NCBI RefSeq assembly: GCF_003610455.1
Contig: NZ_RAQK01000001.1
Location: 2,480,001 to 2,544,000, forward strand
Direction: 5' to 3'
DNA from: Sulfitobacter guttiformis
GTDB lineage: Bacteria; Pseudomonadota; Alphaproteobacteria; Rhodobacterales; Rhodobacteraceae
DNA: 64,000 nucleotides
Notes under the pieces: model-generated
Told to the model about the DNA's origin: nothing
What the model saw: only the letters and a program-made list of their open reading frames with translations
Database searches by the model: none
Position numbers and translations under genes: made by a program
Part shown: positions 41,279 through 60,255 of the stretch, one piece after another
Layout: the number at the start of each line of letters is the position of its first letter
Position numbering within the stretch: the stretch's first letter is position 1

Positions 41279-41353
41279 GCCCGGGTAGCTCAGGGGTAGA
41301 GCAGTGGATTGAAAATCCTCGTGTCGGTGGTTCGATTCCGCCCCTGGGCACCA
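41279..41353 (+). tRNA. tRNA-Phe (GAA)
   Basis: Acceptor stem GCCCGGG pairs with CCTGGGC (one G-T), the D-arm is AGCTCAGGGGTAGAGC, the anticodon loop TTGAAAA has GAA, and the T-arm is GGTGG TTCGATT CCGCC, with encoded CCA at 41351-41353. Total 75 bases. One U-U mismatch is visible in the anticodon stem. The gene remains complete although an element is integrated at its 3' end. Confidence 0.96.
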
Positions 41354-41357
41354 TTTA
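41308..41357 (+). repeat. attL: 50-bp direct repeat inside the tRNA-Phe 3' end
   Basis: From ATTGAAAATCCTC in the anticodon loop to CCATTTA just past the tRNA, this 50-bp stretch is identical to 59272-59321. A tRNA 3' end duplicated at the far side of a segment carrying an integrase is the standard sign of site-specific insertion by a tyrosine recombinase. The bases on both sides differ between the copies, so the boundaries are sharp. Confidence 0.95.
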
Positions 41358-41818
41358 TAACTTATAATATCAGTTTTTACGTTAAAAATGCACGCTAAGC
41401 GTGTGTATTTCAAAAACACACCAAACGCACACTTTTTGACGTGTTCGCGGGCTGGTTTGCGCATGAAACACTGTGTTGAACAGAGTGTTTCTGGGTTGGT
41501 GTGAGAACACAGTGTTTAAGGACACAATGTTCGCCCCAACTAACCAGCAAAGTCCCAGCGCTGCAGCACTGCCATAGCTTGCGGTTTGTTGATGGCGTCT
41601 GACCACTGTGTTTGAGCCATCGCGTTCAATCCCATATGTTGTTGGAGATTTCACGGGCGTTCCTTTCGGCCCTTACCGGCCATTCACCCACGGACCGGCA
41701 TGCTGCGGTGCGGCCCGTCGAACCTGCCATTCGCTGCAACCGCGAAATCAAGGGATCGGCGAATTCACGGTTCGCCGGACAAAGCCGCCGTTTGCCACGC
41801 GCTTCTTTTGCAAAGTGG
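41358..41818. other. Left end of the element: repeat-rich, no gene
   Basis: Contains the repeat CAAAAACACAC at 41411-41421 followed by CGCACACT, then palindromic 11-mers AACACTGTGTT at 41467, AACAGAGTGTT at 41479, AACACAGTGTT at 41506 and GACACAATGTT at 41521, plus a weak copy at 41602. The same elements recur at the right end. I read them as recombinase arm sites or replication sites. No open frame here has a recognisable product. Confidence 0.7.
41411..41531 (+). repeat. Left-end arm repeats and palindromic 11-mers
   Basis: One CAAAAACACAC unit and four copies of a palindrome of the form NACACNGTGTT, two of them spaced by a single base exactly as at 59158-59180. Likely integrase/excisionase or replication-protein binding sites. 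Confidence 0.6.
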
Positions 41819-44017: not shown

Positions 44018-45259
44018 ATGATGCGGCAGCTGCGGGACGACACACATATACTGTTAGACGGTGCAGTCCGTGTGTATCGGCGCGTGCGCAGCAGGCGCTG
44101 GCAGGCAGCCTTTACCATCGACGGGCACACAGTGCGTATCAGCACGGGCAAGCGCGACTTGGAAGAAGCCAAGGAATATGCAGGCGACGCATACCTTGAG
44201 TACAAATTTCGCCACAAGAACGACTTGCCCATCGTCACCAAGAAATTCTCTGACGTGGCACGACTGGCGATTTTGGACATGCGCAAGCAGCTGAACGCGG
44301 GCTTGGGCAAGAAAGTCTACAAAGACTACATCGTGTGCATAGAGAGCTATTTGATTCCGTTCTTTGGCTCGCAGCATGTCACATCAATCGACTACCAGAA
44401 AATCCAAGACTTCTATGAGTGGCGTCGTATCAAAATGGGGCGTGAACCCAAGGCAAGCACGTTGAACACACACAACTCCGCCATGAACCGAGTGTTTGAC
44501 GAAGCTGTGGCGCGAGGGTTTCTGGCGCACAAGAATGTGCCTCTGTTGGTGAACAAGGGCGAGAAAAGCGAACGTCGCCCAGACTTCACGCGCGAAGAAT
44601 ACGCAACGATGATCCGCAAGCTGCCCAGCTGGATCACACAGGGCAAAAAGGGCAAGCCCACTGACATGCGCCATCTGATGCGCGACTATGTATTGATCCT
44701 TGCCAATACAGGGATGAGGCACGGCACTGAGGCGCTGAACCTGCGCTGGAAGCATGTCACGCTGTTCGAAGACAAGGGGCTGCAATACCTAGAAATGAGC
44801 GTGTCGGGCAAAACAGGGCGGCGCGACATCATCTGCCGTTCTGGCACCATCAACTATCTCAAGCGCATTCACGAACGATCAGAAGACATCAAACACATCC
44901 CGTTTGAGCAGCTTCTAAAGAACAAAGTGGATTTGCCTGTGTTCCGCTTGCCGGATGGCACGGTGTCAAAGAACCTGCATCAGACGTTCCGAGCGTTTGT
45001 AACGGAGACAGGGCTGATTACATGTCCGCGCACTGCACAGAACCGAACGCTTTACAGTTTGCGGCACACCTATGCCACGTTCTCTCTGCTCAATGACGGC
45101 ATGGACATCCATGCGTTGGCTGTACAGATGGGCACAAGCATCGGCATGATCGAGCGGCATTACAGCCACCTTACGCCACGTTTGAAGAAGGATATGCTCA
45201 CAGGCAAGCGCTACGAGCTTTCGTATGCTGAATATCAGGCACAGCAAGCGTCAGGGTAG
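44018..45259 (+). CDS. int: Tyrosine integrase of the tRNA-Phe element
   Basis: A 413-residue tyrosine recombinase. Residues 1-60 form an arm-binding-like domain (YRRVRSRRWQAAFTIDGHTVRISTGKRDLEEA), 75-170 a core-binding SAM-like domain, and 190-395 the catalytic domain: R234 in NTGMRHGTEAL, K265 in SGKTGRR, SLRHT at 347-351 (first His replaced by Ser), and nucleophile Y382 in ERHYSHLTP. The usual LGH of motif II is replaced by MGTS, a less common variant. It sits near attL, reading into the element. It most likely catalyses integration and excision at tRNA-Phe. Confidence 0.93.
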   Translation: MMRQLRDDTHILLDGAVRVYRRVRSRRWQAAFTIDGHTVRISTGKRDLEEAKEYAGDAYLEYKFRHKNDLPIVTKKFSDVARLAILDMRKQLNAGLGKKVYKDYIVCIESYLIPFFGSQHVTSIDYQKIQDFYEWRRIKMGREPKASTLNTHNSAMNRVFDEAVARGFLAHKNVPLLVNKGEKSERRPDFTREEYATMIRKLPSWITQGKKGKPTDMRHLMRDYVLILANTGMRHGTEALNLRWKHVTLFEDKGLQYLEMSVSGKTGRRDIICRSGTINYLKRIHERSEDIKHIPFEQLLKNKVDLPVFRLPDGTVSKNLHQTFRAFVTETGLITCPRTAQNRTLYSLRHTYATFSLLNDGMDIHALAVQMGTSIGMIERHYSHLTPRLKKDMLTGKRYELSYAEYQAQQASG

Positions 45260-45435: not shown

Positions 45436-45825
45436 ATGAAAAAGCGCATTTTTTCTTTAATAGCTGTGGCGATAGCGGTAGCAGGATGCGACCCCGCTAT
45501 GCAGGAAAAAGCCAGCCTAGCCGAAAAAATACCTGCCACTCAGACAAATTCAATCCCAATTAAAACAGCTGCGACTGAGCCGTTGGCAGACGGACTATAT
45601 AGCCAAACACTTGCCGGAAAACTGATAACTCTAAGTGTTGTTGATGGACAGCCAGTAAAATATACTTGGGGTGATAGTTATTCAACTACAGATATTTCTC
45701 GGCGCGGTGAAATGATCCAAATTGATGGTGCAAAGTTCAAAATACTTTCAAATAGTCCCGCTAAAATTTCGGGCATCTATAGTTGGGGCGGATATCTCCG
45801 TCGGCTGCACCTGACAAGAAAATGA
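45436..45825 (+). CDS. Small lipoprotein, paralogue of the 46069-46398 product
   Basis: A 129-residue predicted lipoprotein: MKKRIFSLIAVAIAVAGCDP has a lipobox ending at Cys18. A Thr/Lys-rich linker follows to residue about 50, then a beta-rich domain with GKLITLSVVDGQPVKYTWGD, MIQIDGAKFKIL and a closing LHLT. The same domain, with GQPVxYxWG and the I-x-IDxA block, is in the secreted protein encoded nearby on the other strand. I do not recognise the family. AT-richer than the flanking chromosome, which suits cargo of a mobile element. Confidence 0.65.
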   Translation: MKKRIFSLIAVAIAVAGCDPAMQEKASLAEKIPATQTNSIPIKTAATEPLADGLYSQTLAGKLITLSVVDGQPVKYTWGDSYSTTDISRRGEMIQIDGAKFKILSNSPAKISGIYSWGGYLRRLHLTRK

Positions 45826-46068: not shown

Positions 46069-46398
46069 CTAGCCACAGATAAAAGTGACGTCCTGGCCTT
46101 GCCCTTTAAACTGCCACTTCCCCTGAAATGCTGCTTTGCCGCTTTGAGTAGCGCCAACTTTCAAGTTCTCGATAACTGCTTGATCTATGGATATAACGTT
46201 TCCTGTCATGGAGACGTTTTTCGCTTTGTAGCTTCCCCATTTGTATGACACAGGCTGTCCGCCCTGTACTAATATTGTGGCGGTTTTCCCAGAAACGTTG
46301 CCCTTATAGGCGCAGTTGGACAACTCGCTAGCCATTGCGGGTACTGCAAGTGCTAACAACACCGCGCTTGCTGCCGAAACGATGATACCTAGACGCAT
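46069..46398 (-). CDS. Small secreted beta-rich protein, paralogue of the 45436-45825 product
   Basis: A 109-residue exported protein: the signal peptide runs MRLGIIVSAASAVLLALAV and cleaves after AMA. The mature domain (about 85 residues) has CAYKGNVSGKTATILVQGGQPVSYKWG, VISIDQAVIENL and a final FICG, with Cys near each end that could form a disulfide. It shares GQPVxYxWG and the I-x-ID-x-A block with the neighbouring lipoprotein. I chose the ATG at 46398 because the preceding reading begins with a poor signal. Function unknown; convergent with the lipoprotein gene. Confidence 0.68.
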   Translation of the reverse strand: MRLGIIVSAASAVLLALAVPAMASELSNCAYKGNVSGKTATILVQGGQPVSYKWGSYKAKNVSMTGNVISIDQAVIENLKVGATQSGKAAFQGKWQFKGQGQDVTFICG

Positions 46399-46598
46399 AA
46401 AATTTCCTAAATTCAAAAACCACAACAAATTGTTTGGCTACATTGATAAAAGTGGGTCAGTAGAACCTTCTCATCATGAAAATCGCATTCGATTCTGTCA
46501 ACCCATCTATAAATGCTCTATTTTAATAAGGTTCTTTGATATATTGGGGTTTTAAACTGGCGTTCGTGGCAATTTACGCTGAGGTTCGGTCTTAACAT

Positions 46599-47165
46599 TC
46601 AAAGCAGCTCGACTGCTTGGCTCAGCTGCTCTGAATTCACATCAATGTAGCGCTGCGTTGTCGATATGTGGCTGTGCCCCGCAAGTTCAGCAAGCAACCG
46701 CACACCTACGCCTTTGTTCGCCAGCCGCGTAATGTAGGTGCGCCGCCCCGAATGACTTGATGCATCTTTCAACCCGCATGCTTTGTATACGTCGAGGAAC
46801 AGCTGGCACATGGTGTTGCCTGAGAAGTGCCCGCCTTTCTGGCTTTCGAACAGAGGGCTGTTTTGATCTGCGCTGCGTATTGTTTCGCCGTACTCACTCA
46901 GCGATTTGCGCAACCGCTGGTTCAGGTACACTGTGCGGGTTTTGCCCCCTTTGCTTTGCTCTGCGCTGAGAATGAACTGACTGCGCACAGCACCAGCTTC
47001 ATCAAACACGTTGCCCACAGTCAGCGCTGCAATTTCCTTGGCGCGCAGCCCAGCGTAAAAGCTCACCATCACAATCGTTTCATCGCGGACTGGATGACGC
47101 CGACTGCGGCAGTAGTGTAAAACACGACGCAGCTGCGCCTCGTTCAATGTCTGTGCTTGGCGCAT
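46599..47165 (-). CDS. Minimal tyrosine recombinase, 188 aa
   Basis: Essentially only the catalytic domain: R41 in YAGLRAKEIAAL, Lys in SKGGKTRTV, H138 and R141 in SHSGRRTYIT, H164 in AGHSHIS, Y173 in TQRYIDV, so all key residues are present. Proteins of this size resemble FimB/FimE-type invertases or small plasmid resolvases, and could invert DNA or resolve dimers. It lies in the minus-strand gene block of the element and is separate from the integrase. Start at 47165 (MRQAQTLNEAQL) chosen over a longer frame. Confidence 0.88.
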   Translation of the reverse strand: MRQAQTLNEAQLRRVLHYCRSRRHPVRDETIVMVSFYAGLRAKEIAALTVGNVFDEAGAVRSQFILSAEQSKGGKTRTVYLNQRLRKSLSEYGETIRSADQNSPLFESQKGGHFSGNTMCQLFLDVYKACGLKDASSHSGRRTYITRLANKGVGVRLLAELAGHSHISTTQRYIDVNSEQLSQAVELL

Positions 47166-47226
47166 GTCAAAACTCCTAAAAACATAACGTTTTGTTAGCT
47201 TTGACTGTAAAGTCTGAGGTTCCGGT

Positions 47227-47249
47227 TGGTCGACCGAAATCACGCCAAG
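47227..47249 (-). promoter_or_regulatory. Shared operator-like motif, copy 1
   Basis: On the plus strand TTGGTCGACCGAAATC then ACG then CCAA: outer TTGG/CCAA arms flank CGACCGAAATC. It lies 61 bases upstream of the small recombinase start. A near copy precedes the DUF6641 gene at 48965-48988. Confidence 0.5.
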
Positions 47250-47289
47250 TCCGTATGCTATATTTTTCAATGACTTAGGCGATAACCTA

Positions 47290-48129: not shown

Positions 48130-48462
48130 TTAGTATTCGTCAGCCAGCATCACCGTCAGCACTCGCGCAGTGACAGCTGGGTCTGAAGGGGCAGGGCTGT
48201 GCATCGTCAAATCCAAATCGTAATAGTCGAATTTCCAGAACACTGAATGTGCTTGGTGCGTTATTTGTCCGAAGTCATGTTCGCCATATGGATCATTGTC
48301 AGCTGTGAACGCGTCGAAGTTCTGAACTGCCTGTAGAACGTCAGCAACTGACGCCTCACCCAGCGCTTGCACTCCTTGGGTGATCATAACTCGGCATCCC
48401 GCAAATGTGCGCCGAGCCTGATCATTAAGTGCTGCTATTTCGATGGCGTCTGCATCATGCAT
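48130..48462 (-). CDS. DUF3768-type small protein
   Basis: A 110-residue protein starting MHDADAIEIAALNDQARRTF and ending in FWKFDYYDLDLTMHSPAP...RVLTVMLADEY, which matches the DUF3768 ending well. DUF3768 proteins are small, of unknown function and common on alphaproteobacterial plasmids and islands. The ATG at 48462 overlaps the DUF6641 gene end by 8 bases, so the two are translated together. The longer open frame upstream belongs to that gene's other frame. Confidence 0.78.
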   Translation of the reverse strand: MHDADAIEIAALNDQARRTFAGCRVMITQGVQALGEASVADVLQAVQNFDAFTADNDPYGEHDFGQITHQAHSVFWKFDYYDLDLTMHSPAPSDPAVTARVLTVMLADEY

Positions 48463-48913
48463 TTGCGGACGCCTTTGCCGCTCCGGGCTTGAGGCTTGGT
48501 GCACGTTCAGCTGTTTTACTGATGGCTTGATCCAGTTCACCTGCACCAGCTGCCGACATGAAGGCATCCAACACCGCGCCCACGTCTTTGAGTGTTTTGA
48601 CGAACACAGCATTGTTGCTGCCATCTGCCGCAACCACACGTGCCCCGTAGCGGCACTGCACATACCAACCGTTGTCCTGTTCAAAGAACCACGGACGCAC
48701 GCCGCGCATTGCTTTTGTCAGTACGCGCTCGCCCAGCTCATTTTGCATCCATTTGGATTTCTCAACGCGGTGATCTTCGCCTTTGAGTGCAGCGGCATAA
48801 ACCAGCTTTTGCTCTTTCAGCCCAGCCATCAGTTTTTCACGTCGGGCTATCACAGGATCACGTTTGGTGTTCCGAGTGACCGATTTGAACGTTAGCTTTT
48901 CTAGATGTGTCAT
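48455..48913 (-). CDS. DUF6641-type protein
   Basis: A 152-residue basic protein. TRNTKRDPVIARREKLMAGLKEQ at the N-terminus and VRPWFFEQDNGWYVQCRYGARVV, followed by NNAVFVKTLKDVGAVLDAFM, fit a family (DUF6641) usual on plasmids and mobile elements of Rhodobacterales and sphingomonads. Function unknown. It leads a two-gene unit with DUF3768, and the operator-like motif at 48965-48988 lies 52 bases upstream. Confidence 0.75.
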   Translation of the reverse strand: MTHLEKLTFKSVTRNTKRDPVIARREKLMAGLKEQKLVYAAALKGEDHRVEKSKWMQNELGERVLTKAMRGVRPWFFEQDNGWYVQCRYGARVVAADGSNNAVFVKTLKDVGAVLDAFMSAAGAGELDQAISKTAERAPSLKPGAAKASANA

Positions 48914-48988: not shown

Positions 48989-49111
48989 GTATCTGAATTT
49001 ATTACTCTATATTGATACTGCACCGAACCTACGCTCACAAAAAAAGCGTCTAACGGTATGAACCATTGACGCTGTTTTATGTCTGTTAAGTGTATGTACT
49101 GCTTCACGTAT

Positions 49112-49171
49112 TGCTGTTTGAACAGTTGCTCTTTGAACATTTGTTGTTTGAGCATTTGTTCGTGAGTATTG
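49112..49171 (+). repeat. Iteron-like 15-bp tandem repeats
   Basis: Three consecutive 15-mers, TGCTGTTTGAACAGT, TGCTCTTTGAACATT and TGTTGTTTGAGCATT, and a weaker fourth. They lie about 90 bases past the Rep-like stop. Repeats of this length beside a replication initiator are typical of iterons. Confidence 0.6.
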
Positions 49172-49257
49172 ATTTGCCAAGGATTTTACCTAAGACATGC
49201 AATCCACTTATCTGTACGAGAACTGTTTGCGTGCAGGGGCTTAGCCGCGCTGCATCA

Positions 49258-49860
49258 TCAATGTTCGTCGGGTAGCTGATACCTAGCCTGTTGAGCCGCT
49301 AGTGCCTGTTTCGCGTCGTTAAGCCAGAGTGGGCTGGCTGCCCTTAATATGCGTGCCTGCTGTGCATCATGTTGGTATTCAGCCAAAGTGTTGGCAGATG
49401 TTCGGTCCCAACACAGATCGTCCAACAGCGTTTCCCCGCCCAGTTGCCAATACTCACCTGTAAGATAGTTGGTGGCAGCCTTTTTGTGTAGAAGCGGCAT
49501 GATCCAGTTTTTGCCAAGCGGCGCTGTCTGGTAATGATGCTGCGTCCATACGGCGTTTAATACACAGCATGTATGTTCGATGTCTGCGATGGGGGCGAGC
49601 AAAGCAAAATGGACATGATAGTTTTCACTGTCAGAACCTTCATGAGCGAAACACCAGCGCGGAACCCGAACCGCTTGTCGCTCAGCAGCTTTGCCGAAGA
49701 ACACACGATCAATTTTGTTCCAGTATGAACGCAATACTTTGGTTGCGCTGTGTCTGCCGATGGTGCGTCCATCGATGAACTTCAACGTGCCAAAAACATT
49801 CCAATCTTTCGACAGCAGATGATCCATCAAAGCTGCTCTTTCGCGTTTGTGTTGCTCCAT
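49258..49860 (-). CDS. HUH-type replication initiator/relaxase-like protein
   Basis: A 200-residue protein with the three motifs of rolling-circle Rep proteins in order: motif I FGTLKF (residues 23-28), motif II with the HUH pair HVH at 82-84 in NYHVHFALLAP, and motif III KKAATNYLTGEYWQ with candidate catalytic Tyr132 and Tyr137. Such enzymes nick one DNA strand and stay bound to its 5' end. The ATG at 49860 follows a GGGAGAGGA ribosome site; the TTG further upstream is less likely. Next to iteron-like repeats and a AAA+ gene. Activity is inferred. Confidence 0.8.
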   Translation of the reverse strand: MEQHKRERAALMDHLLSKDWNVFGTLKFIDGRTIGRHSATKVLRSYWNKIDRVFFGKAAERQAVRVPRWCFAHEGSDSENYHVHFALLAPIADIEHTCCVLNAVWTQHHYQTAPLGKNWIMPLLHKKAATNYLTGEYWQLGGETLLDDLCWDRTSANTLAEYQHDAQQARILRAASPLWLNDAKQALAAQQARYQLPDEH

Positions 49861-49975
49861 TGGTGTTACATTCCTCTCCCATGTATTTATCAACGAGACA
49901 GAAAAAGGCGCTTGTTTCAGGCAAAGACTGTGGGGCGAACAAATCTGAACAGCCTGTGTTGCGCACTAAGGTCGC

Positions 49976-49986
49976 GACACAGTGTT
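49976..49986. repeat. Internal copy of the end palindrome, upstream of the Rep-like gene
   Basis: GACACAGTGTT, one mismatch from AACACAGTGTT of the element ends, located 115 bases before the HUH gene start. It could be part of the origin or the promoter control of rep. Confidence 0.5.
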
Positions 49987-50063
49987 TGCCCACAGCTTGA
50001 TGCATGGCAAAAAGCCGCCAGCATTGCTGCTGACGGCTTTTAGTCTTTGATTATGTGCGCAGT

Positions 50064-50393
50064 TTAGTCTTCCAAATCCATGACAGCAGAAGGGTATGAC
50101 AGCCCCGCAAGCTCACAGAGATAACGACGCTGTTCGAGTGGGGTCGCTTGATCCCACTGACGCTTGAATGCGCTAAACTCGGATTCCGTCATCTGATGAT
50201 GTGCAGCAGCTTCGAGCGATTGCTTGAGTTCGCCCTCTGCAAGCTCTTTCACATGAGGAAACGGATTTAGCCCTTCGTACCATTGCACCAAGCCGTCAAT
50301 TTGTTCGAGACGTTTGAGAGCTTCTATGACACGGATATCGACTAATTGTTTGATGTTGAGGATTTCAAGAAGCAGTTTGCGGCGTTGCATCAT
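50064..50393 (-). CDS. Hypothetical partner of the AAA+ ATPase, 109 aa
   Basis: A 109-residue acidic, mostly helical protein with no recognisable domain, signal or membrane span. Residues 1-35 (RRKLLLEILNIKQLVDIRVIEALKRLEQI) look like one long helix able to pack against another protein; the C-terminus ends in an acidic VMDLED tail. Its start overlaps the end of the AAA+ gene by 4 bases (ATGA), so the two proteins are probably made together. A role as an ATPase partner is inferred only from this coupling. Confidence 0.65.
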   Translation of the reverse strand: MMQRRKLLLEILNIKQLVDIRVIEALKRLEQIDGLVQWYEGLNPFPHVKELAEGELKQSLEAAAHHQMTESEFSAFKRQWDQATPLEQRRYLCELAGLSYPSAVMDLED

Positions 50394-51118
50394 TTAATCA
50401 CCTTTTTGATAGTACCTGCAACAGCTTGCGCGGTAAGGCTTGGCTTTGTCGCAGATGGCTGAGCTGACTGCTGATTTGTCACCAGCGACACCGCGGCTGA
50501 CTTTAGCTTAAGTATATAATCCTCCACCCAATCGTTGAGGTTGCGCCCGCTTTGGTCAAAACCCTGAAGCAGAACGCATGCTTGTTCATGTGTTACTGTA
50601 AAGCCTTCTGCGTTGAAGATGTTCATGACGCGGTACGCCCATTGTTCTGAGCTAGGGTAGTCGACATGTAAGCAGCGAAAGCGATCTTTGAGCGGCGCAT
50701 CAATGAGATGGAGGTTATTGGTAGTCGCAATTACGATGCCACCTTGGTGCTCGTCGATAAAAGCACGGAACCGTTTCTGCATTGGCATCGAGAACTGATC
50801 TAGTTCATCAAAGATGACGCATCCAGTATGCGCGCCCAGCAAAGTTTGCATTTGCCAAGAGTTCATCACTTTCTGAAAGCTATCAGAGTCTGCTTCATAG
50901 CTATTGGCATGAAAGGGATCATTAAACGCAGTATCTCCTACCCTCGCGTTTAGGACAATCTGTGCCGTTACGCTTTTGCCAGTACCTTTTGGCCCATACA
51001 GCAGAAGATGCTTGTTGATCTTGTTTTTTGCGTAGTCTTCAAGCGTTTGCTCCACAGCAGCACTCTTGAACATGACGTCACGCAAGGATGTTGGGCGGTT
51101 TCTTTGTTCGAAATTCAT
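50390..51118 (-). CDS. AAA+ ATPase resembling clamp-loader small subunits
   Basis: A 242-residue AAA+ protein. It opens RPTSLRDVMFKSAAVEQTLEDY, the same order as the RFC box (RPxxLxDVxGQ). Walker A is GPKGTGKS (42-49), Walker B VIFDEL (101-106), sensor 1 TTNN (132-135), an Arg-finger-like DRFR (145-148) and a sensor-2-like GRNLND (191-196). This matches RFC/gp44-type clamp loaders and related loaders more than DnaA, MCM or IstB types. RFC small subunits are about 320 residues; the collar domain is short here. It lies directly upstream of the Rep-like gene region in one leftward block. Confidence 0.82.
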   Translation of the reverse strand: MNFEQRNRPTSLRDVMFKSAAVEQTLEDYAKNKINKHLLLYGPKGTGKSVTAQIVLNARVGDTAFNDPFHANSYEADSDSFQKVMNSWQMQTLLGAHTGCVIFDELDQFSMPMQKRFRAFIDEHQGGIVIATTNNLHLIDAPLKDRFRCLHVDYPSSEQWAYRVMNIFNAEGFTVTHEQACVLLQGFDQSGRNLNDWVEDYILKLKSAAVSLVTNQQSAQPSATKPSLTAQAVAGTIKKVIK

Positions 51119-51187
51119 GGTTAATTTTCTTTCTAAATTTGAGATGATGTAGGCAGCACAACGCTGCCTACTATTGGAGTTGAGGGG

Positions 51188-52012
51188 TTAAGCTGTGACA
51201 GGTTGCGTGAGAGTAACGGTTTCAGGCAGCTGCAATTCAGGTTGAAAAACCTTTGGCGCAGGTAGGCTTTGCATCAGCTGCTGAAGGTTCAGTGCTCGCT
51301 GATCTGCGTCAGCCTCAGCAACACTGCGTTCAACTCTTTTGACAACATTTGCTTTGAGCGCTTTTCCTGCGATATTGAGGACGTTGTTGACGGCAGCCAT
51401 GTTATTTGTGCCAAACACAATGCTGCCTGTGCCGTCGTCATTCTTGCGCACAAGGGCGAGACTGAACCGAGCGCCATCAACTGGCTGAAGTCCGTCACCC
51501 ATTGTGACTGGAAAGAGCTCCGCCTGATCTGCCAGCATTGCTTCTGCAAATTCGCGTGCCATATGTGTTGACTTAGTATCAGACGAACTCAAAGGCATCT
51601 TACGCCGGATTTCATCGATGCCGTGGTTGTCAACAATGTACTGGGGAAGCTCGGAGCCGATGATGCCTTCTCCGGCAGCAACTTCAATTACGCGGCAATA
51701 GACAAAAGCGCGGTTTTCGATCTTGTTTTGGCGATCAGTTCCCACAAATACGAGACGAACAACCTTCAGGGCTAAACTTGTCTGGGAATTGTGGGTGAGC
51801 TTGTAGATGTCCATCAATCGGTTGATGGCTTTGCAGTGATCTAGATTTCTGCGGACTTTGATGAAGAAGTCGAGCGTGGAGCCGAGGAGCGCGTAAAGTT
51901 CAGCGTTACTCGCAGCATAAGTGCCTGCCTCCCATCTGCGGTGCTGTGCTGCAAGGGCTTCGATGGCGTTGCTCAGATCGTGTACGTTTTTGTCTTCAAG
52001 TCTTGTAGTCAT
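51188..52012 (-). CDS. Unknown protein upstream of the AAA+ gene, 274 aa
   Basis: A 274-residue soluble protein I cannot assign. The N-terminal half is helical (NAIEALAAQHRRWEAGTYAASNAELYALLG, then FFIKVRRNLDHCKAINRLMDIYK), the centre has strand-rich LALKVVRLVFVG and RFSLALVRKNDDGTGSIVFGTN, and the C-terminus is Pro/Gln-rich and flexible. A DNA-binding or single-strand-binding role would fit the block but is speculation. The ATG at 52012 follows an AAAAGGAAA ribosome site 6-8 bases upstream; the ATG at 52033 lacks one. Confidence 0.65.
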   Translation of the reverse strand: MTTRLEDKNVHDLSNAIEALAAQHRRWEAGTYAASNAELYALLGSTLDFFIKVRRNLDHCKAINRLMDIYKLTHNSQTSLALKVVRLVFVGTDRQNKIENRAFVYCRVIEVAAGEGIIGSELPQYIVDNHGIDEIRRKMPLSSSDTKSTHMAREFAEAMLADQAELFPVTMGDGLQPVDGARFSLALVRKNDDGTGSIVFGTNNMAAVNNVLNIAGKALKANVVKRVERSVAEADADQRALNLQQLMQSLPAPKVFQPELQLPETVTLTQPVTA

Positions 52013-52165
52013 GTTAAGTTTCCTTTTGCTCATGTTCTGCCGACACGGTGTTGCGCCGACTTAGGAAACATCTCACATTGCCGCTCAATGGGCGTTTGGC
52101 GGCATTCACCTGAGGTTAGTGTTGCCAATGCTGCGGCAGTCATCATTTTTGAATGGAAACACTTG

Positions 52166-53110
52166 ATGTACCAAAAGCACTTGCGTGATCTGGATGTTGT
52201 GTACTTCCGATACGCTCCGCCGCAGGCGTTTCGAAACGATACGAGCAGCGAGAAACTTCCAAATCCGCCATTTTCAGGCGCAGCACCTTGGCAATGCTCA
52301 GTCTATTATTATTGGTGGCTTTTCTTACGAGAGCATCAAGCTCTGCATGGTGATAGCTCTGAGATTGAGATGCTGATTGCAAATCAAGATTGGAAGCTAA
52401 ATATGAACGTCCGTTCGGAATTTGGCTCCGTGACTGAAGTTGGTTTTTTGCGTTGGTGGATTTTGACTGGGCGTCATCTGTTCTGTGAGGTTGCTGAGCA
52501 CAGTGTCAGGGCACTCACTTCCAACGAGGTCAACCATGGCGTGGAACTATCAGATGGTAGGCGAGTACCGATTCATGATGCCAACATTTATTTGCAGATT
52601 CCTGTACATCAGGATTTAGACAAATCCATCGAGGAGGTGCGGGCATATTTGCGGCAAGCAAAACAGCGGCAACATGTGAATCCAGATTATGAGGCACGAT
52701 ATCCGGTGTTTACGAAGCCTGTACTGACTGCTCTTGAAAAAACGTATCGAGCATGGATTTTGCGTAAGTCACATCCTGAAATGCCGCTTGCAGAAATTGC
52801 GGTGGAAGCTGGATTGGCTGCAAGGGCTGATAATACTGATACAGCGAACAAATCAGCCAACGCTTCAGCTGCTAGTCGCGCATTGAATCAAGCCACGCTA
52901 TTGATCGAATGGGTGGGTAAGGGCATATTTCCTGTCACTTCCAAATCCCAAGAATTGCGCGCGGCTGACATGGCTGAACGGCAATGGAAGAAACTCCACA
53001 GCAGTGATTTTAAAGACGCACGTTACAGGTCATCTCGTCATAAGCGTTCTAATGCTGATCTGACAGAACAGGCGGCAGTCCACGGCTTAGACTTAGACGC
53101 CGTGCGCTGA
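52166..53110 (+). CDS. Hypothetical protein, 314 aa, opposite strand to the Rep block
   Basis: A 314-residue protein starting MYQKHLRDLDVVYFRYAPPQAF. Blocks VYYYWWLFLREHQAL, EFGSVTEVGFLRWWI and GRHLFCE form a pattern (YWW...FLR...EFG-x-V...WW...LF-E) seen in proteins of other integrated elements, but I cannot name the family. The C-terminal half holds LPLAEIAVEAGLAARAD, a helix-turn-helix-like stretch, and a basic tail. It starts about 150 bases from the 51188-52012 gene, so the two share a divergent promoter region. Might be a regulator or a partition-type protein. Confidence 0.65.
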   Translation: MYQKHLRDLDVVYFRYAPPQAFRNDTSSEKLPNPPFSGAAPWQCSVYYYWWLFLREHQALHGDSSEIEMLIANQDWKLNMNVRSEFGSVTEVGFLRWWILTGRHLFCEVAEHSVRALTSNEVNHGVELSDGRRVPIHDANIYLQIPVHQDLDKSIEEVRAYLRQAKQRQHVNPDYEARYPVFTKPVLTALEKTYRAWILRKSHPEMPLAEIAVEAGLAARADNTDTANKSANASAASRALNQATLLIEWVGKGIFPVTSKSQELRAADMAERQWKKLHSSDFKDARYRSSRHKRSNADLTEQAAVHGLDLDAVR

Positions 53111-53162: not shown

Positions 53163-53173
53163 AACACAGTGTT
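53163..53173. repeat. Internal copy of the end palindrome, exact
   Basis: AACACAGTGTT, identical to the left-end copy at 41506-41516. It lies in the short gap after the 314-residue protein gene and about 100 bases before the small cysteine-rich gene. Confidence 0.55.
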
Positions 53174-53593: not shown

Positions 53594-53920
53594 ATGACCA
53601 TAAAGCTACTTGAACACCTTCGTGACGAGCTGATCCAGTCAGGGGCAGTACAGAACACACCAGAGTTTTGCCGTTGCTGGCTGGGGCGAAGCGAGGGGTA
53701 TATCAGAACGCTGCGCTACCATGGAATTGAGCCCAGCGTTGAAGCGCTAGCTGTGTGCAGCAACAAGTTGGGATTCTATGCGGATCAACTGCGGAACAGT
53801 GACATAGAGCCCCATCTGTTTTGGGTGGTGCGCTTTGATGATCTCAAAAGGCTGTGTGATGAAGCGTTGGCGCAGCAAGTTCGAGCCGTTTGGCAAGCGC
53901 CAAGCAGAATGTCGGCATGA
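53594..53920 (+). CDS. DUF6626-like helix-turn-helix protein
   Basis: A 108-residue protein. LLEHLRDELIQSGAVQNTPEFCRCWLGRSEGYIRTLRYHGIEPSVEALAV, taken in parts, matches the DUF6626 layout: an N-terminal helix, LGRS-x-Y, and EPSVEAL. It probably binds DNA through a helix-turn-helix. It overlaps the next small ORF by 4 bases (ATGA). Rightward, in the part of the element beyond the Rep block. Confidence 0.7.
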   Translation: MTIKLLEHLRDELIQSGAVQNTPEFCRCWLGRSEGYIRTLRYHGIEPSVEALAVCSNKLGFYADQLRNSDIEPHLFWVVRFDDLKRLCDEALAQQVRAVWQAPSRMSA

Positions 53921-54576: not shown

Positions 54577-56151
54577 CTATCCATTGCAAAAATACTCGGG
54601 GCGGCCGGTGGCCCAGCGAGGTTTTAGCCTAACACCAACTAGCGCACCTACGGCACTTCTTTCGGTCTTGCTAAGGCCTGTATTACCGCTTTGAACTTGC
54701 CCGTCAACTATCGTCAAAAAGCCGTGTTCGTATAGATAATCACAACCGAATATACATAGTGGGAACACAATGTGCGGATCGAGGCGTTCACTATCGCTGC
54801 ATTGGCTGCGTTTCTTTTTGTGGGCGACAACTAATGCATTTCTGGAATATTTCCGTTGGCAAATTGCACATCGTCGCTTATTCTTTTGGCCAAATATCCA
54901 ATCAGCAAGAATTGACTGTTCTCGCCTCCTAGTCCCAATAGAGGCTTGATCAGTATTACCAATTTTTGAGAGCCGATCCTTGAAGCGATCATACCTTTTT
55001 TCATTTGTCGAATTCTGATCAAAAGCAAGATCGGATGCCAGTGTCACCAAGTAATTTCCACGCCCACCTTTTTTATCAATAAACAATAGTGGCGAGTTGA
55101 ATATTAGCTTTCCAATATTGGCAGAACCCAGCCCCTCTGCCACCAGAGATTTTGTGACTTCAGGTGTAGGTATTGCCCCCCTTCCACGCATGATATTGCA
55201 TAGGATATCTTCTCCGTCACCTAACTCTCCGGGAGTACCTTTGAAGCTGGCTAATCCATCTTCAACGACGAAGTGACGTGATTGCATAATCCACGTGCGA
55301 ATTAAGCTCTCGCTGGGAAATTCCGTATTTGCAGCACGTCGACGCAAGGAATGCGACAGCATTTCAGTGAGGTGGTCCACTCCAATGCTTTCAACGATTG
55401 AGAAAACTTTTTCAGCAGCATTAATTAAGCTGTTCCCATCCGAATTTTCGAAAATATACCAGAGATCTTCCCCCTCCACTGCACTCCATGTTTGCTCGTT
55501 CAATACAATGAGATCTTTTAAAACTTTGAAATCTTCGGTGGTCTTGGGGCCTTTGACATAGCTCAGTTTTCCCAAGCCGACCAAACCCGGAACTTTATAA
55601 GCGGCTTTAAGATGTTTCTTCAGCGACCTCAGCTTTGATTCGTTACAAATTACCCGTGCCTCGTGCTTTGAATAGCTGTTTCTGGTAACCTTTTCCAAGT
55701 TCGCGTGGCAAACTGTGTAGCCCTCGGAAAGCCCTTGGCTTCTGAGGTAGTCAATTATCCCCACCAGTGTCGGGAAATTCCCAATCAAGCTTTTTGTTTG
55801 TAGTTGTTGTAGCAAATCCGGCTCCAACCAAAAGTCTCGTTGGGTGATAACCGCGTCTACCATTTTCGCGATAGGAAGCGGGCCATCAAGATGATCGCGA
55901 TAGTTGCGCTCTATAAGTTGGCGGACACGCTCACGGGTAAGCTCTCCATAATTTTGTCCGAGCGCTTCATAAGTTGGCATGATCTGATCATCTGCGCCAA
56001 ACCCATAATAGTCCAAGATTATTGCATGATTTCGAGTTTGAAGAATTGGGTCAAGTTCCGCCATTTTACGCGGCGTTCCGTCCAATTTTAGTTGACCGGC
56101 TTTTCGTGGAACGTTCACCAAAAACTCTCGGAATTCTTCTTCGATATCCAA
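54577..56151 (-). CDS. HNH nuclease with a sigma region 4-like N-terminus
   Basis: A 524-residue protein. Residues about 47-82 (YYGFGADDQIMPTYEALG, then LTRERVRQLIERN) match the -35-binding helix-turn-helix of sigma70 region 4, including TRERVRQ. The middle is an unnamed domain. The C-terminus has CAICQRKYSRNALVVAHK from residue 428, the AH of an HNH site, then FPLCIFGCDYLYEHG, with CxxC and paired cysteines for zinc. Start TTG at 56151 is supported by AAGGA 7-8 bases upstream. Nucleases of this HNH type occur in defence loci; role here is inferred. Confidence 0.75.
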   Translation of the reverse strand: MDIEEEFREFLVNVPRKAGQLKLDGTPRKMAELDPILQTRNHAIILDYYGFGADDQIMPTYEALGQNYGELTRERVRQLIERNYRDHLDGPLPIAKMVDAVITQRDFWLEPDLLQQLQTKSLIGNFPTLVGIIDYLRSQGLSEGYTVCHANLEKVTRNSYSKHEARVICNESKLRSLKKHLKAAYKVPGLVGLGKLSYVKGPKTTEDFKVLKDLIVLNEQTWSAVEGEDLWYIFENSDGNSLINAAEKVFSIVESIGVDHLTEMLSHSLRRRAANTEFPSESLIRTWIMQSRHFVVEDGLASFKGTPGELGDGEDILCNIMRGRGAIPTPEVTKSLVAEGLGSANIGKLIFNSPLLFIDKKGGRGNYLVTLASDLAFDQNSTNEKRYDRFKDRLSKIGNTDQASIGTRRREQSILADWIFGQKNKRRCAICQRKYSRNALVVAHKKKRSQCSDSERLDPHIVFPLCIFGCDYLYEHGFLTIVDGQVQSGNTGLSKTERSAVGALVGVRLKPRWATGRPEYFCNG

Positions 56152-56929: not shown

Positions 56930-58894
56930 ATGAGCACTAAGTCATATTATGCGGCGAGGGTAGAAGAGTTTTTGCTGCTTTCGACAGAAGAGATTGTTGG
57001 GCAACTTGCGATACGGGTTGGATCTGAGCACAGCGGAAATGAAGGTAATCAAATTCGCGCTTGGCGGACACAGATTGGCCTACTCAAAGAAGCACTGACT
57101 GACCCGCAGTGTTCAGATTGGGGGATCTTGCTAGAGCTGCCTCTTCTACGGTTGGGCAGACGTATCGACACCGTTATCCTGATTGGTGATTGCATAGCTT
57201 GTATCGAATTTAAGATCGGATCGGCAAGTTTTGGATCTGGTGATATAGATCAGGCGGTTGATTATGCCCTCTGTCTCCGCGACTTCCATGCAGCTAGCCA
57301 CAATCGCACAATCATCCCAATACTGTGTGCGGACAAGGCGGCTCTTCAACGTGACAGAACACAAATCGAAATTATCGAAGGGGTTAGTCAATGCTTGCTC
57401 GTTAATGGGCTACAGCTTGCTAGAGCTATTGAATTAATTGCGGAGGAAGCTGAGCCAAATCAGATTGATTGGCGCGCTTACGATGCGGCGACTTACAGCC
57501 CCACGCCAGATATCGTTACAGCAGCGCGTGGACTTTATTCGGGTCATACGGTCAAAGAGATCGGGCGTTCAGATGCTGCGGCTGAATCCTTGGAGCGAAC
57601 AGCGGCGCGTCTGAAGGCGATTGCTGATGATGCACGGATACACGGAAAGAAAGTTATTTGCTTTGTTACTGGAGAGCCTGGGTCTGGGAAAACTCTCTTG
57701 GGTTTGGACATGGTGTTTTCAGGAAGTACTGGACGCGATGCTAACGAACCCGCCGCTTTACTGAGCGGCAACAGACCATTGGTGTTTGTCCTCCAGGCTG
57801 CCATTGCTGAGGATGCGCGAAAACGTCTCGGAGTCAAAGCGCCGGAAGCCAAGCGACAATCCCAACAGGCACTTCAAACACTATTGGGCTATCTGAAGGA
57901 CCACGCAGCTCCAGACTCAGATCCACCCGAGAACATCATCGTGTTTGATGAAGCGCAACGGGCTTGGGATGCTGACACCGGACTCAAGCTTCTTGGACGC
58001 GCTAAATCCGAACCTGAGCTGTTCCTAGAGATTATGGGGCGACTGCCTTGGGCTTGCTTGGTATGTTTGGTTGGTCCGGGCCAGGAGATTAACCGCGGCG
58101 AAGGTGGCTTGATGCTGTGGGGCGAGGCGCTCGCAAAATCGCAAGAGTGGACAGCCCACATTTCGGAAATCGCATTAAGAGAACGGAAAGGCTTAATCGG
58201 GCTGTTGGACATCGCAAACGGCGCGGATGTTGCTATCAATCTGGAACCTGAACTTCATCTTCAAACAAACCTCAGAGCCCATAGGAACCATCTTCATGGT
58301 AGTTGGGTTGCTGCGCTGCTCGAAGGGGATATTGAAAGTGCCGCGTCAATTGCGGCTGAAATGGAAAGCCCTCCTGCGTTAGTCACCCGCGATCTTGCAG
58401 AGATGAAAGAATGGCTAAGTCTTCGCAGAAGAGGTGAACAGCGGGTTGGGCTTCTCGCGAGTAGTGGAGCAACTAGGCTCATCGCCGATGGCATCCCTGC
58501 TTCTCCACGATCTGATGACCTCGGAGCGGTTGTGCATTGGTTTTTGAAGCCGAACGGCGATTTTCGGTCATCAAACTCACTTGAGACTCCACTGTCTGAA
58601 TTCGTCTGCCAAGGGCTTGAGATTGATTACGCTGGCTTATGCTGGGGCAATGACTTGATCTGGGAAAACAGAAACTGGCTGCCGCGGAAAATGCGCGCGC
58701 CCAACTGGCAAGTCCTTAAGAAAGAAGATGCCAAACAGTATCGAGTCAACACATATCGCGTTTTGCTTACGCGCGCCCGAGCAGGGACGGTGATCTACGT
58801 CCCGAATGGTGATCCGGGAGATCCCACGCGGAAGCCTTCTGACTTTGAGGGCGTTTTTGAAACTCTTCAGTCCGCTGGATGTTCGGTGATATAG
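56930..58894 (+). CDS. PD-(D/E)xK-like nuclease fused to a DUF2075 helicase
   Basis: A 654-residue protein. Residues 60-115 hold a nuclease-like core: ELPLLRLGRRIDTVILIGDCIACIEFKIG, with D80 and E93-x-K95 in the order expected for PD-(D/E)xK enzymes. Residues 240-650 form a DUF2075/Schlafen-type ATPase: Walker A GEPGSGKT (248-255), Walker B IIVFDEAQRAW with D340 E341, and a motif VI-like RVLLTRARAG near residue 620. Such fusions are frequent in defence islands. Divergent from the HNH gene; the two may act together. Function inferred. Confidence 0.8.
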   Translation: MSTKSYYAARVEEFLLLSTEEIVGQLAIRVGSEHSGNEGNQIRAWRTQIGLLKEALTDPQCSDWGILLELPLLRLGRRIDTVILIGDCIACIEFKIGSASFGSGDIDQAVDYALCLRDFHAASHNRTIIPILCADKAALQRDRTQIEIIEGVSQCLLVNGLQLARAIELIAEEAEPNQIDWRAYDAATYSPTPDIVTAARGLYSGHTVKEIGRSDAAAESLERTAARLKAIADDARIHGKKVICFVTGEPGSGKTLLGLDMVFSGSTGRDANEPAALLSGNRPLVFVLQAAIAEDARKRLGVKAPEAKRQSQQALQTLLGYLKDHAAPDSDPPENIIVFDEAQRAWDADTGLKLLGRAKSEPELFLEIMGRLPWACLVCLVGPGQEINRGEGGLMLWGEALAKSQEWTAHISEIALRERKGLIGLLDIANGADVAINLEPELHLQTNLRAHRNHLHGSWVAALLEGDIESAASIAAEMESPPALVTRDLAEMKEWLSLRRRGEQRVGLLASSGATRLIADGIPASPRSDDLGAVVHWFLKPNGDFRSSNSLETPLSEFVCQGLEIDYAGLCWGNDLIWENRNWLPRKMRAPNWQVLKKEDAKQYRVNTYRVLLTRARAGTVIYVPNGDPGDPTRKPSDFEGVFETLQSAGCSVI

Positions 58895-59271
58895 GCACTC
58901 TGATTAGCCAAAGTGGGAAGGCTGCAATGCCTGCGATTTTGGAGATATATTTAATATTTCCTAGCTGGGCATGATCCCGAGCATTTCGTTTGCTGACGTT
59001 TCAGCCTGAAAATGGTGCGGGTGTATAAATTGAGGCAATGCGAAAGAGGCGATGCAGCGTTTGGATGAAGGCATGCTTAGGTAAGTGCGTTGTCCTGCGT
59101 GTTTGCTGTTTGGGTGATTTCCGGCTGTCCATTCACTGTGTTTGCGTTAGTGTTGTAAACACTGTGTTGAACACAGTCTTTAGAGCGAATATCCAAAAAC
59201 ACACTTTTACGCACACTAAAATTTTTGCACAGTAAACCACTGCAAAATATGACTTATATACAGCCATCTGT
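58895..59271. other. Right end of the element: repeats, no gene
   Basis: Contains palindromes at 59132-59142 (weak), 59158-59168 (AACACTGTGTT) and 59170-59180 (AACACAGTCTT), and the unit CAAAAACACAC at 59194-59204 followed by CGCACACT, matching the left end in order-specific detail. A 65-residue frame covers it but reads across the repeats and is not believable as a gene. Confidence 0.7.
59158..59212 (+). repeat. Right-end arm repeats and palindromic 11-mers
   Basis: AACACTGTGTT, one base, AACACAGTCTT, then CAAAAACACAC and CGCACACT. The pair of palindromes with a one-base spacer also starts at 41467. Direct orientation relative to the left end. Confidence 0.65.
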
Positions 59272-59321
59272 ATTGAAAATCCTCGTGTCGGTGGTTCGAT
59301 TCCGCCCCTGGGCACCATTTA
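59272..59321 (+). repeat. attR: 50-bp direct repeat of the tRNA-Phe 3' end
   Basis: Identical to 41308-41357, from ATTGAAAATCCTC to CCATTTA. The 5' part of the tRNA is absent here, so this is the incomplete copy and the functional gene is at the left side. It marks the right boundary of the element. Confidence 0.95.
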
Positions 59322-59650
59322 AGTATTTGATATATCATACTTTATTTATCCTTTGGGTTTAGTTTGTATCCGTAACCCGCTTTGGGATTACATTGGGGCT
59401 ACACTCAGGTTTTGTTCGTTATTCGATCTAAGAACTTACAAATATCATCGTGCGGAACCGGTCAACGTCCAAGTTATTTTCATATATTTTTGATTAGACA
59501 CGCATGTTATCGAAGGGCGTTTCAAGCTTCAGTCGAACTTTTCAGGAAGCTATCTTAAGCGAGGAAATTCCAAAACTTGCTATCAAACCAAATTTCGATA
59601 TCGGAAAATAGACCAAAATCCTTTTCATAGCCAATGTGAAAGGGAACTAT
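59322..59650. other. AT-rich stretch after attR, 329 bp
   Basis: No convincing gene until the AlpA-like start. It is AT-rich compared with the left chromosome and may be the left end of another inserted element that once used the same tRNA. I find no further copy of the tRNA 3' end in the window. Confidence 0.5.
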
Positions 59651-59827
59651 ATGTTCGACGTAAAACCACTCCTCACCATCAAAGATGTTTGCATGCTTCT
59701 TCAACGCTCCAAAGCAAGCATTTATCGTGACATTGATGACGGATCATTTCCAAAACCTTTGAAGCTTAAAGGCTCGTCCCGGTGGACTATGAGTGATATA
59801 GAATCCCGCATTTCTGGTGCGCGATAA
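59651..59827 (+). CDS. AlpA-like excisionase/regulator, 58 aa
   Basis: A 58-residue MerR-superfamily helix-turn-helix protein: LLTIKDVCMLLQRSKASIYRDIDDGSFPKPLKLKGSSRWTMSDIESRI fits AlpA/excisionase proteins, with the wing in SSRW. These control excision of prophages or islands. The ATG at 59651 has AAAGGGA 5 bases upstream. It is outside attR, so it may belong to a second element or be left over from one. Confidence 0.85.
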   Translation: MFDVKPLLTIKDVCMLLQRSKASIYRDIDDGSFPKPLKLKGSSRWTMSDIESRISGAR

Positions 59828-59860
59828 TATAGAAAATCTGATTGGTTGACGAAACCTGTC

Positions 59861-59881
59861 GGCTCAAGAAAATATTGAGCC
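59861..59881 (+). terminator. Hairpin after the AlpA-like gene
   Basis: GGCTCAA-gaaaata-TTGAGCC, a perfect 7-bp stem 34 bases past the gene end. There is no U-tract, so termination is uncertain. Confidence 0.35.
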
Positions 59882-60021
59882 CAGTGTTCGGATGTCGAAG
59901 GGCACTTATCAGCGCCATTCTGTCAGTCGATTAGCTACAATTAGGGAGGGCCGATCTCACATTGAAACCGCCCCTCCCTACTTTTGTTTGGAATTTTATT
60001 GGCGCCAATCTAATGGACTTT

Positions 60022-60255
60022 CTACCGATTGAAACGATCAATAATTTCAGCAGCTGCGGCCACGTTAAGAGCCTCACGCAGCAGGTCTCGAAATTGATGC
60101 ACAGGAACGCAGGCCTGCTGCAAAGCGGCAAGGTGGTCTGGCAGGCAGAGTTCGAGCCAGCCTTCATGAGGACACCCCTCATCCCAGATCAACTCGGTTT
60201 TCTGCCCGTTCTTAATCCAGCTGTCTGCCTGTGCCAGAATGGTCACGAGCCCCAT
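60022..60255 (-). CDS. Hypothetical protein, 77 aa, possibly a gene fragment
   Basis: A 77-residue acidic helical product with coherent composition: IWDEGCPHEGWLELCLPDHLAALQQACVPVHQFRDLLREALNVAAAAEIIDRF in parts. Codons upstream of the ATG (FLDEKIE) look coding too, up to a stop further back, which suggests a truncated longer gene. I cannot name it. Opposite strand from its neighbours. Confidence 0.4.
   Translation of the reverse strand: MGLVTILAQADSWIKNGQKTELIWDEGCPHEGWLELCLPDHLAALQQACVPVHQFRDLLREALNVAAAAEIIDRFNR

What the first reader, a model, noticed from the sequence alone, without database searches (positions are those of the whole stretch)
49258..52012. HUH Rep-like protein in one leftward block with a clamp-loader-like AAA+ ATPase
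The genes at 49258-49860 (HUH motif HVH, motif III tyrosines), 50064-50393, 50390-51118 (RFC-box-like start, GPKGTGKS, VIFDEL, TTNN) and 51188-52012 run together, the middle two overlapping by 4 bases. A rolling-circle-type initiator with its own clamp-loader-like ATPase, not a helicase, would be an unusual replication module. The two partner proteins are of unknown family. I see this as the best candidate for an undescribed system.
Basis: partly seen in the sequence, partly recalled or inferred. Interest (0 to 1): 0.85.

Follow-up and report, generated by a model that had tools for sequence, protein, structure and literature searches.

The report
Mobile element with swappable ATPase cassette
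The four genes lie in an 18-kb mobile DNA element inserted in a tRNA gene; the gene for a probable DNA-nicking replication protein travels with the element's backbone, whereas the clamp-loader-like ATPase belongs to a separate, swappable gene cassette of unknown function.

Summary
The genes are real and conserved. They sit in a ~18-kb element in tRNA-Phe, bounded by a 53-nt repeat (41305-41357/59269-59321), with a tyrosine integrase, a second short tyrosine recombinase and a phage-defence candidate. The HUH call is likely but rests on relatives: two remote ones pass the Pfam PF23343 (Rep ORF2/G2P) cut-off, the window's copy does not. A candidate origin (repeats, conserved motif, hairpin) follows the gene. 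The ATPase is closest to RFC small subunits/T4 gp44, but lacks the collar domain, and no clamp was found among the element proteins scanned.

Relatives: the order 281-aa gene, AAA+, HUH recurs in five other loci. But gene histories disagree: over seven loci HUH tracks the backbone (r 0.66-0.72); AAA+ tracks its 281-aa partner (r 0.95), not HUH (r -0.33). Eight of 17 cassette loci show no HUH; L152 has HUH and no cassette. So: two modules on one element, a probable rolling-circle Rep and an undescribed three-gene cassette, perhaps an initiator/loader pair (inferred). No structure prediction was possible. Interest about 0.5.

The parts
41305..41357 (+). attL: 3' part of tRNA-Phe plus a few bases (tRNA 41279-41353)
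   Evidence: 53-nt direct repeat with 59269-59321, 98% identical; tRNA-Phe
59269..59321 (+). attR copy of the tRNA-Phe 3' end; right end of the ~18-kb element
   Evidence: 45-53-nt copies of the tRNA-Phe 3' end are listed in 13 of 36 genomes of the genus
44018..45259 (+). tyrosine integrase (Int, 413 aa)
   Evidence: PF00589 E 3.6e-7; 85-88% identical in L148, L153, L156
46599..47270 (-). short tyrosine recombinase (Yrec), 223 aa as ORF; most relatives are 188 aa
   Evidence: PF00589 E 6.5e-29, phrog_216 E 3.5e-45; 76-96% identity across the elements compared
48130..48684 (-). DUF3768 protein (backbone)
   Evidence: PF12599 E 1.6e-35
48455..48913 (-). 152-aa backbone protein (p152)
   Evidence: phrog_31551 E 1.9e-15; 43-93% identity across the elements compared
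49039..49072 (-). terminator-like hairpin with T-run downstream of HUH
   Evidence: conserved in the 8 aligned regions; place checked
49111..49158 (.). 15-bp iterons x 3.2, part of candidate double-strand origin
   Evidence: TRF score 68; TCAAACA-type repeats in relatives
49167..49181 (-). window's divergent copy (4 mismatches) of CTTGGCACATCCTTG, a motif found just downstream of HUH in 7 of 7 other close-HUH loci
49258..49860 (-). probable HUH (Y1) Rep-type protein, 200 aa (211 aa if TTG 49893)
   Evidence: PF23343 REP_ORF2-G2P: 27 of 41 relatives at E<=1, 2 of 41 at E<=1e-3 (L165 34.9 and L166 33 bits, cut-off 27.8), window copy none; phrog_3584 replication initiation for 2 of 41; invariant HxH and Y132
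49976..49986 (+). AACACWGTGTT-type palindrome upstream of HUH (1 mismatch)
50064..50393 (-). 109-aa accessory protein, not core
   Evidence: only in the window, L147 (x2), L148 (x2), L153 among the loci
50390..51118 (-). AAA+ ATPase, RFC/gp44-like, collarless (242 aa)
   Evidence: phrog_168 clamp loader E 8.7e-23; profile vs PDB RFC5 E 1.2e-23 over profile positions 5-213
51188..52033 (-). 281-aa partner of the AAA+ (p281), no known family
   Evidence: adjacent to AAA+ in 13 of 13 family places; identity matrices correlate r=0.95
52166..53110 (+). divergent third cassette gene (p389; longest ORF from GTG 51941, start more likely ATG 52166)
   Evidence: relative in divergent position in 17 of 18 loci with p281+AAA+; no Pfam or PDB relative
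53163..53173 (+). perfect AACACAGTGTT palindrome between p389 and DUF6626
53594..53920 (+). DUF6626 protein, proposed regulator
   Evidence: PF20331 E 4.5e-38; regulator role inferred
41467..41516 (+). AACACWGTGTT palindromes inside attL
59158..59180 (+). AACACWGTGTT palindromes inside attR
56930..58894 (+). cargo: PDC-S41 phage-defence candidate (Schlafen group 3-type helicase domain)
   Evidence: PADLOC E 1.4e-215; PF09848 E 3.4e-66

Best explanation
The four genes are parts of two independent modules on a ~18-kb integrative element in tRNA-Phe of a Rhodobacteraceae-type bacterium. Module 1 (backbone: Int, short recombinase Yrec, DUF6626, p152/DUF3768, HUH): after Int-mediated excision the HUH protein nicks a double-strand origin just downstream of its own gene and starts rolling-circle replication; Yrec may resolve multimers; DUF6626 probably acts on AACACWGTGTT palindromes at both ends and upstream of HUH. 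Module 2 (p389 facing p281-AAA+): an exchangeable cassette in which a collarless RFC/gp44-like AAA+ ATPase works with its operon partner p281, most likely as a DNA-binding initiator/remodeller plus ATP-driven loader, under or beside the divergent p389. Shown by calls: the element's anatomy, family relations, linkage, separate histories, conserved sites. Inferred: excision, nicking, what DUF6626 and Yrec do, and the function of module 2.
For: att repeat and tRNA; tRNA-Phe 3'-end copies in 13 of 36 genomes of the genus; tRNA repeats of 40 nt or more also in L158 and L159. HUH. Candidate origin: (motif within 1 mismatch after HUH in 7 of 7 other close-HUH loci; none within 2 mismatches in the 10 AAA+ loci without close HUH). 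Palindromes: 9 in the window vs 0.68 expected, 0 of 100 shuffles reach 9, all 9 inside the element; no perfect site in 1.76 Mb of control loci. Separate histories: (HUH-p152 r 0.66, HUH-DUF6626 r 0.72, HUH-AAA+ r -0.33, AAA+-p281 r 0.95; 7 loci). Cassette: p389 in 17 of 18 loci with p281+AAA+; AAA+ beside p281 in 13 of 13 family places. In L151 the cassette sits at another place of the backbone.
Against: HUH has the cassette nearby in 7 of the 8 intact close-HUH places, more than a chance pairing needs. The window's HUH copy matches no Rep family itself; only 2 of 41 relatives match PF23343 at E<=1e-3, and they are remote (29% and 23% identity). p389 does not correlate with p281 (r -0.19); identities of 23-38% are near saturation, so correlations over 7 loci are rough. 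The window's own origin motif has 4 mismatches. Perfect palindromes are in only 9 of the 24 other mapped loci. No DNA-binding fold was shown for p281, p389 or DUF6626; structure prediction was off. Nothing shows that the element excises.
Confidence: 0.57

Rival explanations
1. The p389 | p281-AAA+ cassette is a conflict module (anti-phage or inter-element immunity), carried as variable cargo; the RFC-like ATPase powers a sensor/effector rather than replication.
For: It is far more diverse than the backbone (AAA+ 25-74%, p389 23-73% vs Yrec 76-96%), is swapped, was not found in L152, L198 and L200, and the element carries a defence candidate.
Against: PADLOC gives the AAA+ six weak matches, best IetA E 2.4e-7 over 25 residues around Walker A, and none for p281 or p389. 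A Yrec of this element type lies in 14 of 17 cassette loci, two of the other three being cut by contig ends; free defence genes would be expected in other contexts too. Replication modules are also swapped and diverse.
Confidence: 0.25
2. One reading: HUH and the AAA+ form one rolling-circle module, the ATPase loading a clamp or helicase for HUH.
For: Order p281-AAA+-HUH on one strand in six loci; the cassette near HUH in 7 of 8 intact close-HUH places.
Against: Uncorrelated divergence; no close HUH in 10 of 17 mapped cassette loci (L077 and L155 have a remote relative); L152 has HUH and no cassette in the 20 kb fetched; no clamp family among the element proteins scanned, no collar domain.
Confidence: 0.12
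3. The AAA+/p281 pair regulates site-specific recombination (acts on Yrec or Int), like AAA+ regulators of DDE transposases.
For: Yrec in the mapped locus in 14 of 17 cassette loci, including a gammaproteobacterial MAG (L076).
Against: Yrec occurs without the cassette in L152, L198 and L200. The AAA+ is RFC-like; transposition and DnaC-type AAA+ families match only weakly (phrog_296 E 0.098, phrog_50 E 0.021).
Confidence: 0.1

Closest known systems
PF23343 REP_ORF2-G2P (rolling-circle Rep of phages; name from Pfam, phage groups recalled)
   Same: Two remote relatives pass the cut-off, 27 of 41 relatives match at E<=1; HxH and one tyrosine conserved; candidate origin next to the gene
   Different: The window's own sequence gives no PF23343 match; carried by a chromosomal integrative element; no relative found in viral contigs, phages or plasmids at the sensitivity used
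RFC small subunit / T4 gp44 clamp loader (phrog_168)
   Same: AAA+ core and lid align (profile 5-213): Walker A, DExD, sensor-1 NN, arginine at the SRC-box position, sensor-2 arginine (box names recalled)
   Different: No collar domain, no clamp family seen, partner p281 instead; ~240 aa instead of ~320
Phage satellites of marine bacteria (PICMI, PMC10803314, passages seen)
   Same: Small integrative element with Int, a replication gene and defence cargo
   Different: PICMI is defined by Int, AlpA, a primase and the fis site; here Int + Yrec + DUF6626 + HUH and tRNA sites
Phage initiator-loader pairs such as lambda O/P (recalled)
   Same: Two adjacent, diverse genes that co-diverge and are exchanged as a unit
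   Different: No sequence relation shown; lambda P is not AAA+ (recalled); p281's DNA binding untested

Membership tests
HUH rolling-circle Rep (PF23343) | Profile match | tested here: inconclusive
   Window copy: none. Relatives: 27 of 41 at E<=1, 2 of 41 at E<=1e-3, L165 and L166 above the curated cut-off; these are 29% and 23% identical to the window copy and were found with it as query at E 1.4e-6 and 3.8e-5
HUH rolling-circle Rep (PF23343) | HUH motif and catalytic tyrosine conserved | tested here: met
   H82, H84, Y132 invariant in 41 sequences
HUH rolling-circle Rep (PF23343) | Origin with nick site and iterons | tested here: inconclusive
   Conserved motif and repeats downstream; nicking untested; window copy has 4 mismatches
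HUH rolling-circle Rep (PF23343) | HUH fold | not testable with these tools
   Structure prediction off; no meaningful PDB sequence match
Clamp loader (RFC/gp44/DnaX) | RFC-type AAA+ core and lid | tested here: met
Clamp loader (RFC/gp44/DnaX) | C-terminal collar domain | tested here: not met
   Matches end at the lid; the short tail is unconserved
Clamp loader (RFC/gp44/DnaX) | Clamp or other loader subunits encoded nearby | tested here: not met
   No such family among 10 element proteins scanned with Pfam, PHROGs and NCBIfam and 6 more with Pfam only; smaller ORFs not scanned
Clamp loader (RFC/gp44/DnaX) | Pentamer, clamp opening | not testable with these tools
   needs experiment
tRNA-targeted integrative element | Int and att repeats at a tRNA | tested here: met
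tRNA-targeted integrative element | Excision/circular form | not testable with these tools
   needs PCR or reads
PICMI-type phage satellite | AlpA, primase, fis site | tested here: not met
   tRNA-Phe site; no AlpA or primase family among the 16 element proteins scanned with Pfam; criteria from passages of PMC10803314

The most novel reading that the evidence does not exclude
The p389 | p281-AAA+ cassette is a previously undescribed ATP-driven system of integrative elements: a clamp-loader-type ATPase stripped of its collar and re-purposed to act with a non-clamp partner (p281), with a freely exchanged divergent specificity protein (p389), giving each element its own replication or immunity type, independent of the element's rolling-circle Rep.
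Probability: 0.3. Interest if true: 0.72.

Novelty: new variant of a known kind. Interest (0 to 1): 0.5.

Why it matters
It defines, with boundaries and testable sites, a family of integrative elements of alphaproteobacteria (one relative in a gammaproteobacterial MAG, L076) with a probable HUH Rep in the backbone and a three-gene cassette whose two partner proteins match no family consistently in the libraries searched here. A mobile element with an RFC-like ATPase and no clamp in sight is a chance to learn what the clamp-loader core does outside clamp loading.

Tried and rejected
T4-like 45-44-62 order (p281 as clamp, 109-aa protein as small loader subunit): rejected, since p281 matches no clamp and the 109-aa gene is in only 4 loci. 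Phage origin: the HUH and p281 scans of viral contigs found no relative (pattern-based), HUH none in phages; the AAA+ hits in viral contigs are at most 29% identical (a capped list of 66). Plasmid origin: no hits for HUH, p281, AAA+. A second origin as repeats in the p281/AAA+ genes or the p389-p281 gap: nothing convincing. att repeats were not found in the stretches tested of L148, L149, L153, L157, L074, L162 and L163; the 19-nt repeat of L156 and the 60-nt one of L198, which lies in similar porin-like genes, I do not count. Empty site by the right flank: that flank is not conserved in the genus. Of (capped list, 44 loci) I used four; the other 40, and the 66 viral loci, I treated as ordinary AAA+ relatives from the listing and from tblastn with 11 window proteins, where the only further hit among them was a recombinase in L017. 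The Amylibacter relative named was not in the loci fetched.

Full report
OBSERVATION. AAA+ core residues and HxH plus Y132 are conserved in the aligned relatives; Y137 varies.

WHERE IT LIES. GC falls from ~0.57 to ~0.49-0.50 after 42 kb. A 53-nt repeat of the tRNA-Phe 3' end (41305-41357) recurs at 59269-59321, so the element spans ~18 kb. Short (45-53 nt) copies of that 3' end are listed in 13 of 36 genomes of the genus, so the tRNA looks like a hotspot. The element carries a 586-aa ORF, Int (44018-45259), a short recombinase Yrec (46599-47270), a 244-aa ORF, DUF3768, p152, HUH, the 109-aa gene, AAA+, p281, the divergent gene p389, DUF6626, an unassigned 524-aa ORF and PDC-S41. The family is probably Rhodobacteraceae: same-family genome G789 has contigs of 377209 and 137486 bases, the lengths listed for Marimonas arenosa proteins; this is inference.

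RELATIVES. Among 394 same-family genomes (393 genera) the HUH protein matches in 12 (16 places) and p281 in 9 (13 places), own genome included. Of 8 intact places with close HUH (the other seven 58-71% identical to the window's), 7 have p281+AAA+ in the same stretch (window, L147-L151, L153) and one, L152, has not; a ninth is a fragment (L160). In the window, L147-L150 and L153 the order is p281, AAA+, (109-aa gene in some), HUH on one strand; in L151 cassette and HUH sit in another order. All 13 p281 places have AAA+ beside it (L159's p281 is in two ORFs). Of the 17 loci with p281+AAA+, 7 have close HUH, 2 (L077, L155) a remote relative, 8 none found (L074, L075, L076, L154, L156-L159; L075 and L076 are contigs of 6.6 and 4.5 kb). 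With L174 there are 18 such loci, and p389 faces the pair in 17 (not L077). Exceptions told: L162 has p281 and HUH but no AAA+ found, at a contig start; L175 and L176 have weak p281 matches and no AAA+ in 3.5 kb; L161 and L163, with HUH and no cassette seen, also begin at contig starts. L198 and L200 have Yrec and DUF6626 with neither HUH nor cassette in 20 kb. HUH was found only in the own genome in the class search (1 of 385) and p281 in 4 of 289. Of 60 relatives (36 of the genus, own included) 7 match the AAA+, six of them weakly (28-29% identity, E 7e-5 or worse) and outside the genus.

SEPARATE HISTORIES. Pairwise identities over ten loci, where the gene is present: Yrec 76-96%, p152 43-93%, DUF6626 53-99%, HUH 58-85%, against AAA+ 25-74%, p281 30-77%, p389 23-73%; Int 38-88%. 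L149/L150: p152 and DUF6626 93%, HUH 78%, AAA+ 33%. L147/L148: AAA+ 74% while HUH 61%. L148/L074: p389 73%, p281 48%; L148/L147: p389 27%, p281 77%. L152/L153 lie in one genome with HUH 85%, p152 89%, Yrec 96%, DUF6626 99% (but Int 40%), yet L152 has no cassette. Matrix correlations over seven loci with permutation: HUH-DUF6626 0.72 (p 0.002), HUH-p152 0.66 (p 0.006), AAA+-p281 0.95 (p 0.002), HUH-AAA+ -0.33, HUH-p281 -0.30, AAA+-p389 -0.22. Faster evolution alone does not explain a pair in which AAA+ is more alike than HUH; exchange does. Values near 30% are close to saturation, a limit of this test.

WHAT THE PROTEINS ARE. HUH: the window copy matches no Rep family in Pfam, PHROGs or NCBIfam (phrog_10883, unknown function, E 0.0046). 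Of 41 relatives 27 match PF23343 REP_ORF2-G2P at E<=1, the next commonest family matching 6, but only 2 at E<=1e-3: L165 (E 1.9e-8, 34.9 bits) and L166 (7.5e-8, 33 bits), cut-off 27.8. L077 matches PF01446 Rep_1 weakly (0.012); L155, L162 and L163 match no Rep family; 2 of 41 match phrog_3584 replication initiation, best E 1.7e-6. No PDB match by sequence. So HUH Rep is the likely reading, by relatives and motifs. AAA+: phrog_168 clamp loader E 8.7e-23; profile against PDB sequences: RFC5 1.2e-23, archaeal RFC small 4.5e-23, gp44 5e-16 to 6e-16, DnaX gamma 3e-9, RarA 3e-7. The match stops at the lid and the tail is unconserved, so no collar. p281 and p389 match no family consistently: single members reach E 0.0008-0.001 for unrelated families (p281) or 0.024 (p389), and no PDB sequence meaningfully.

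SITES. Just after HUH lie a CTTGGCACATCCTTG motif (within 1 mismatch in L147-L153, 7 of 7), TCAAACA-type repeats (in the window 15 bp x 3.2) and a terminator-like hairpin. The motif is not found within 2 mismatches in L074-L077 or L154-L159, the ten AAA+ loci without close HUH; L164 and L165 have a 2-mismatch site far from HUH; the control stretch (1.76 Mb, which includes 3.7 kb of the own genome) has 21 sites within 3 mismatches. The window copy has 4 mismatches, which speaks against the whole motif being essential. AACACWGTGTT palindromes: 9 in the window with up to 1 mismatch, 4 perfect, all inside the element, 0.68 expected, 0 of 100 shuffles reach 9. They lie inside both ends, upstream of HUH and between p389 and DUF6626; one (51320, 1 mismatch) is inside p281. 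Perfect sites occur in 9 of the 24 other mapped loci and not in 15; the control has none. That DUF6626 binds them is inference.

MECHANISM. Most likely: Int excises; HUH replicates the circle from its adjacent origin; Yrec resolves multimers; DUF6626 times it; the p281-AAA+ pair is an initiator/loader-like machine with its own regulator p389. The first part rests on families and sites; the second on co-divergence and gene order only.

LITERATURE. Searches of the held open library listed no paper that, by title and start of abstract, describes such an element family; the terms were few, and subscription journals and preprints are missing. PMC10803314, PMC13386836 and PMC5714925 were seen as passages only; the rest as search listings.

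Noticed in passing
window 56930-58894: PDC-S41 phage-defence candidate with Schlafen group 3-type helicase domain, just inside attR.
   Followed up: partly
window 54577-56151: 524-aa minus-strand protein with CxxC pairs that look like an HNH-type end (by eye); no Pfam or PADLOC match.
   Followed up: partly
window 41819-43579: 586-aa protein with DUF723 and an I-HmuI/NUMOD-like end, possibly a homing-type endonuclease, next to attL.
   Followed up: partly
window 45436-45825 and 46069-46428: Two small secreted-looking proteins of similar sequence by eye, on opposite strands between Int and Yrec; no Pfam match.
   Followed up: no
window 59322-60500: Stretch beyond attR has a match in only 1 of 35 other same-genus genomes, of 127 bp, so another island may follow.
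   Followed up: no
L152 and L153 (one genome, G704): Two such elements with DUF6626 genes 13.9 kb apart, one with and one without the AAA+ cassette; the genome has two further cassette loci (L154, L155).
   Followed up: partly
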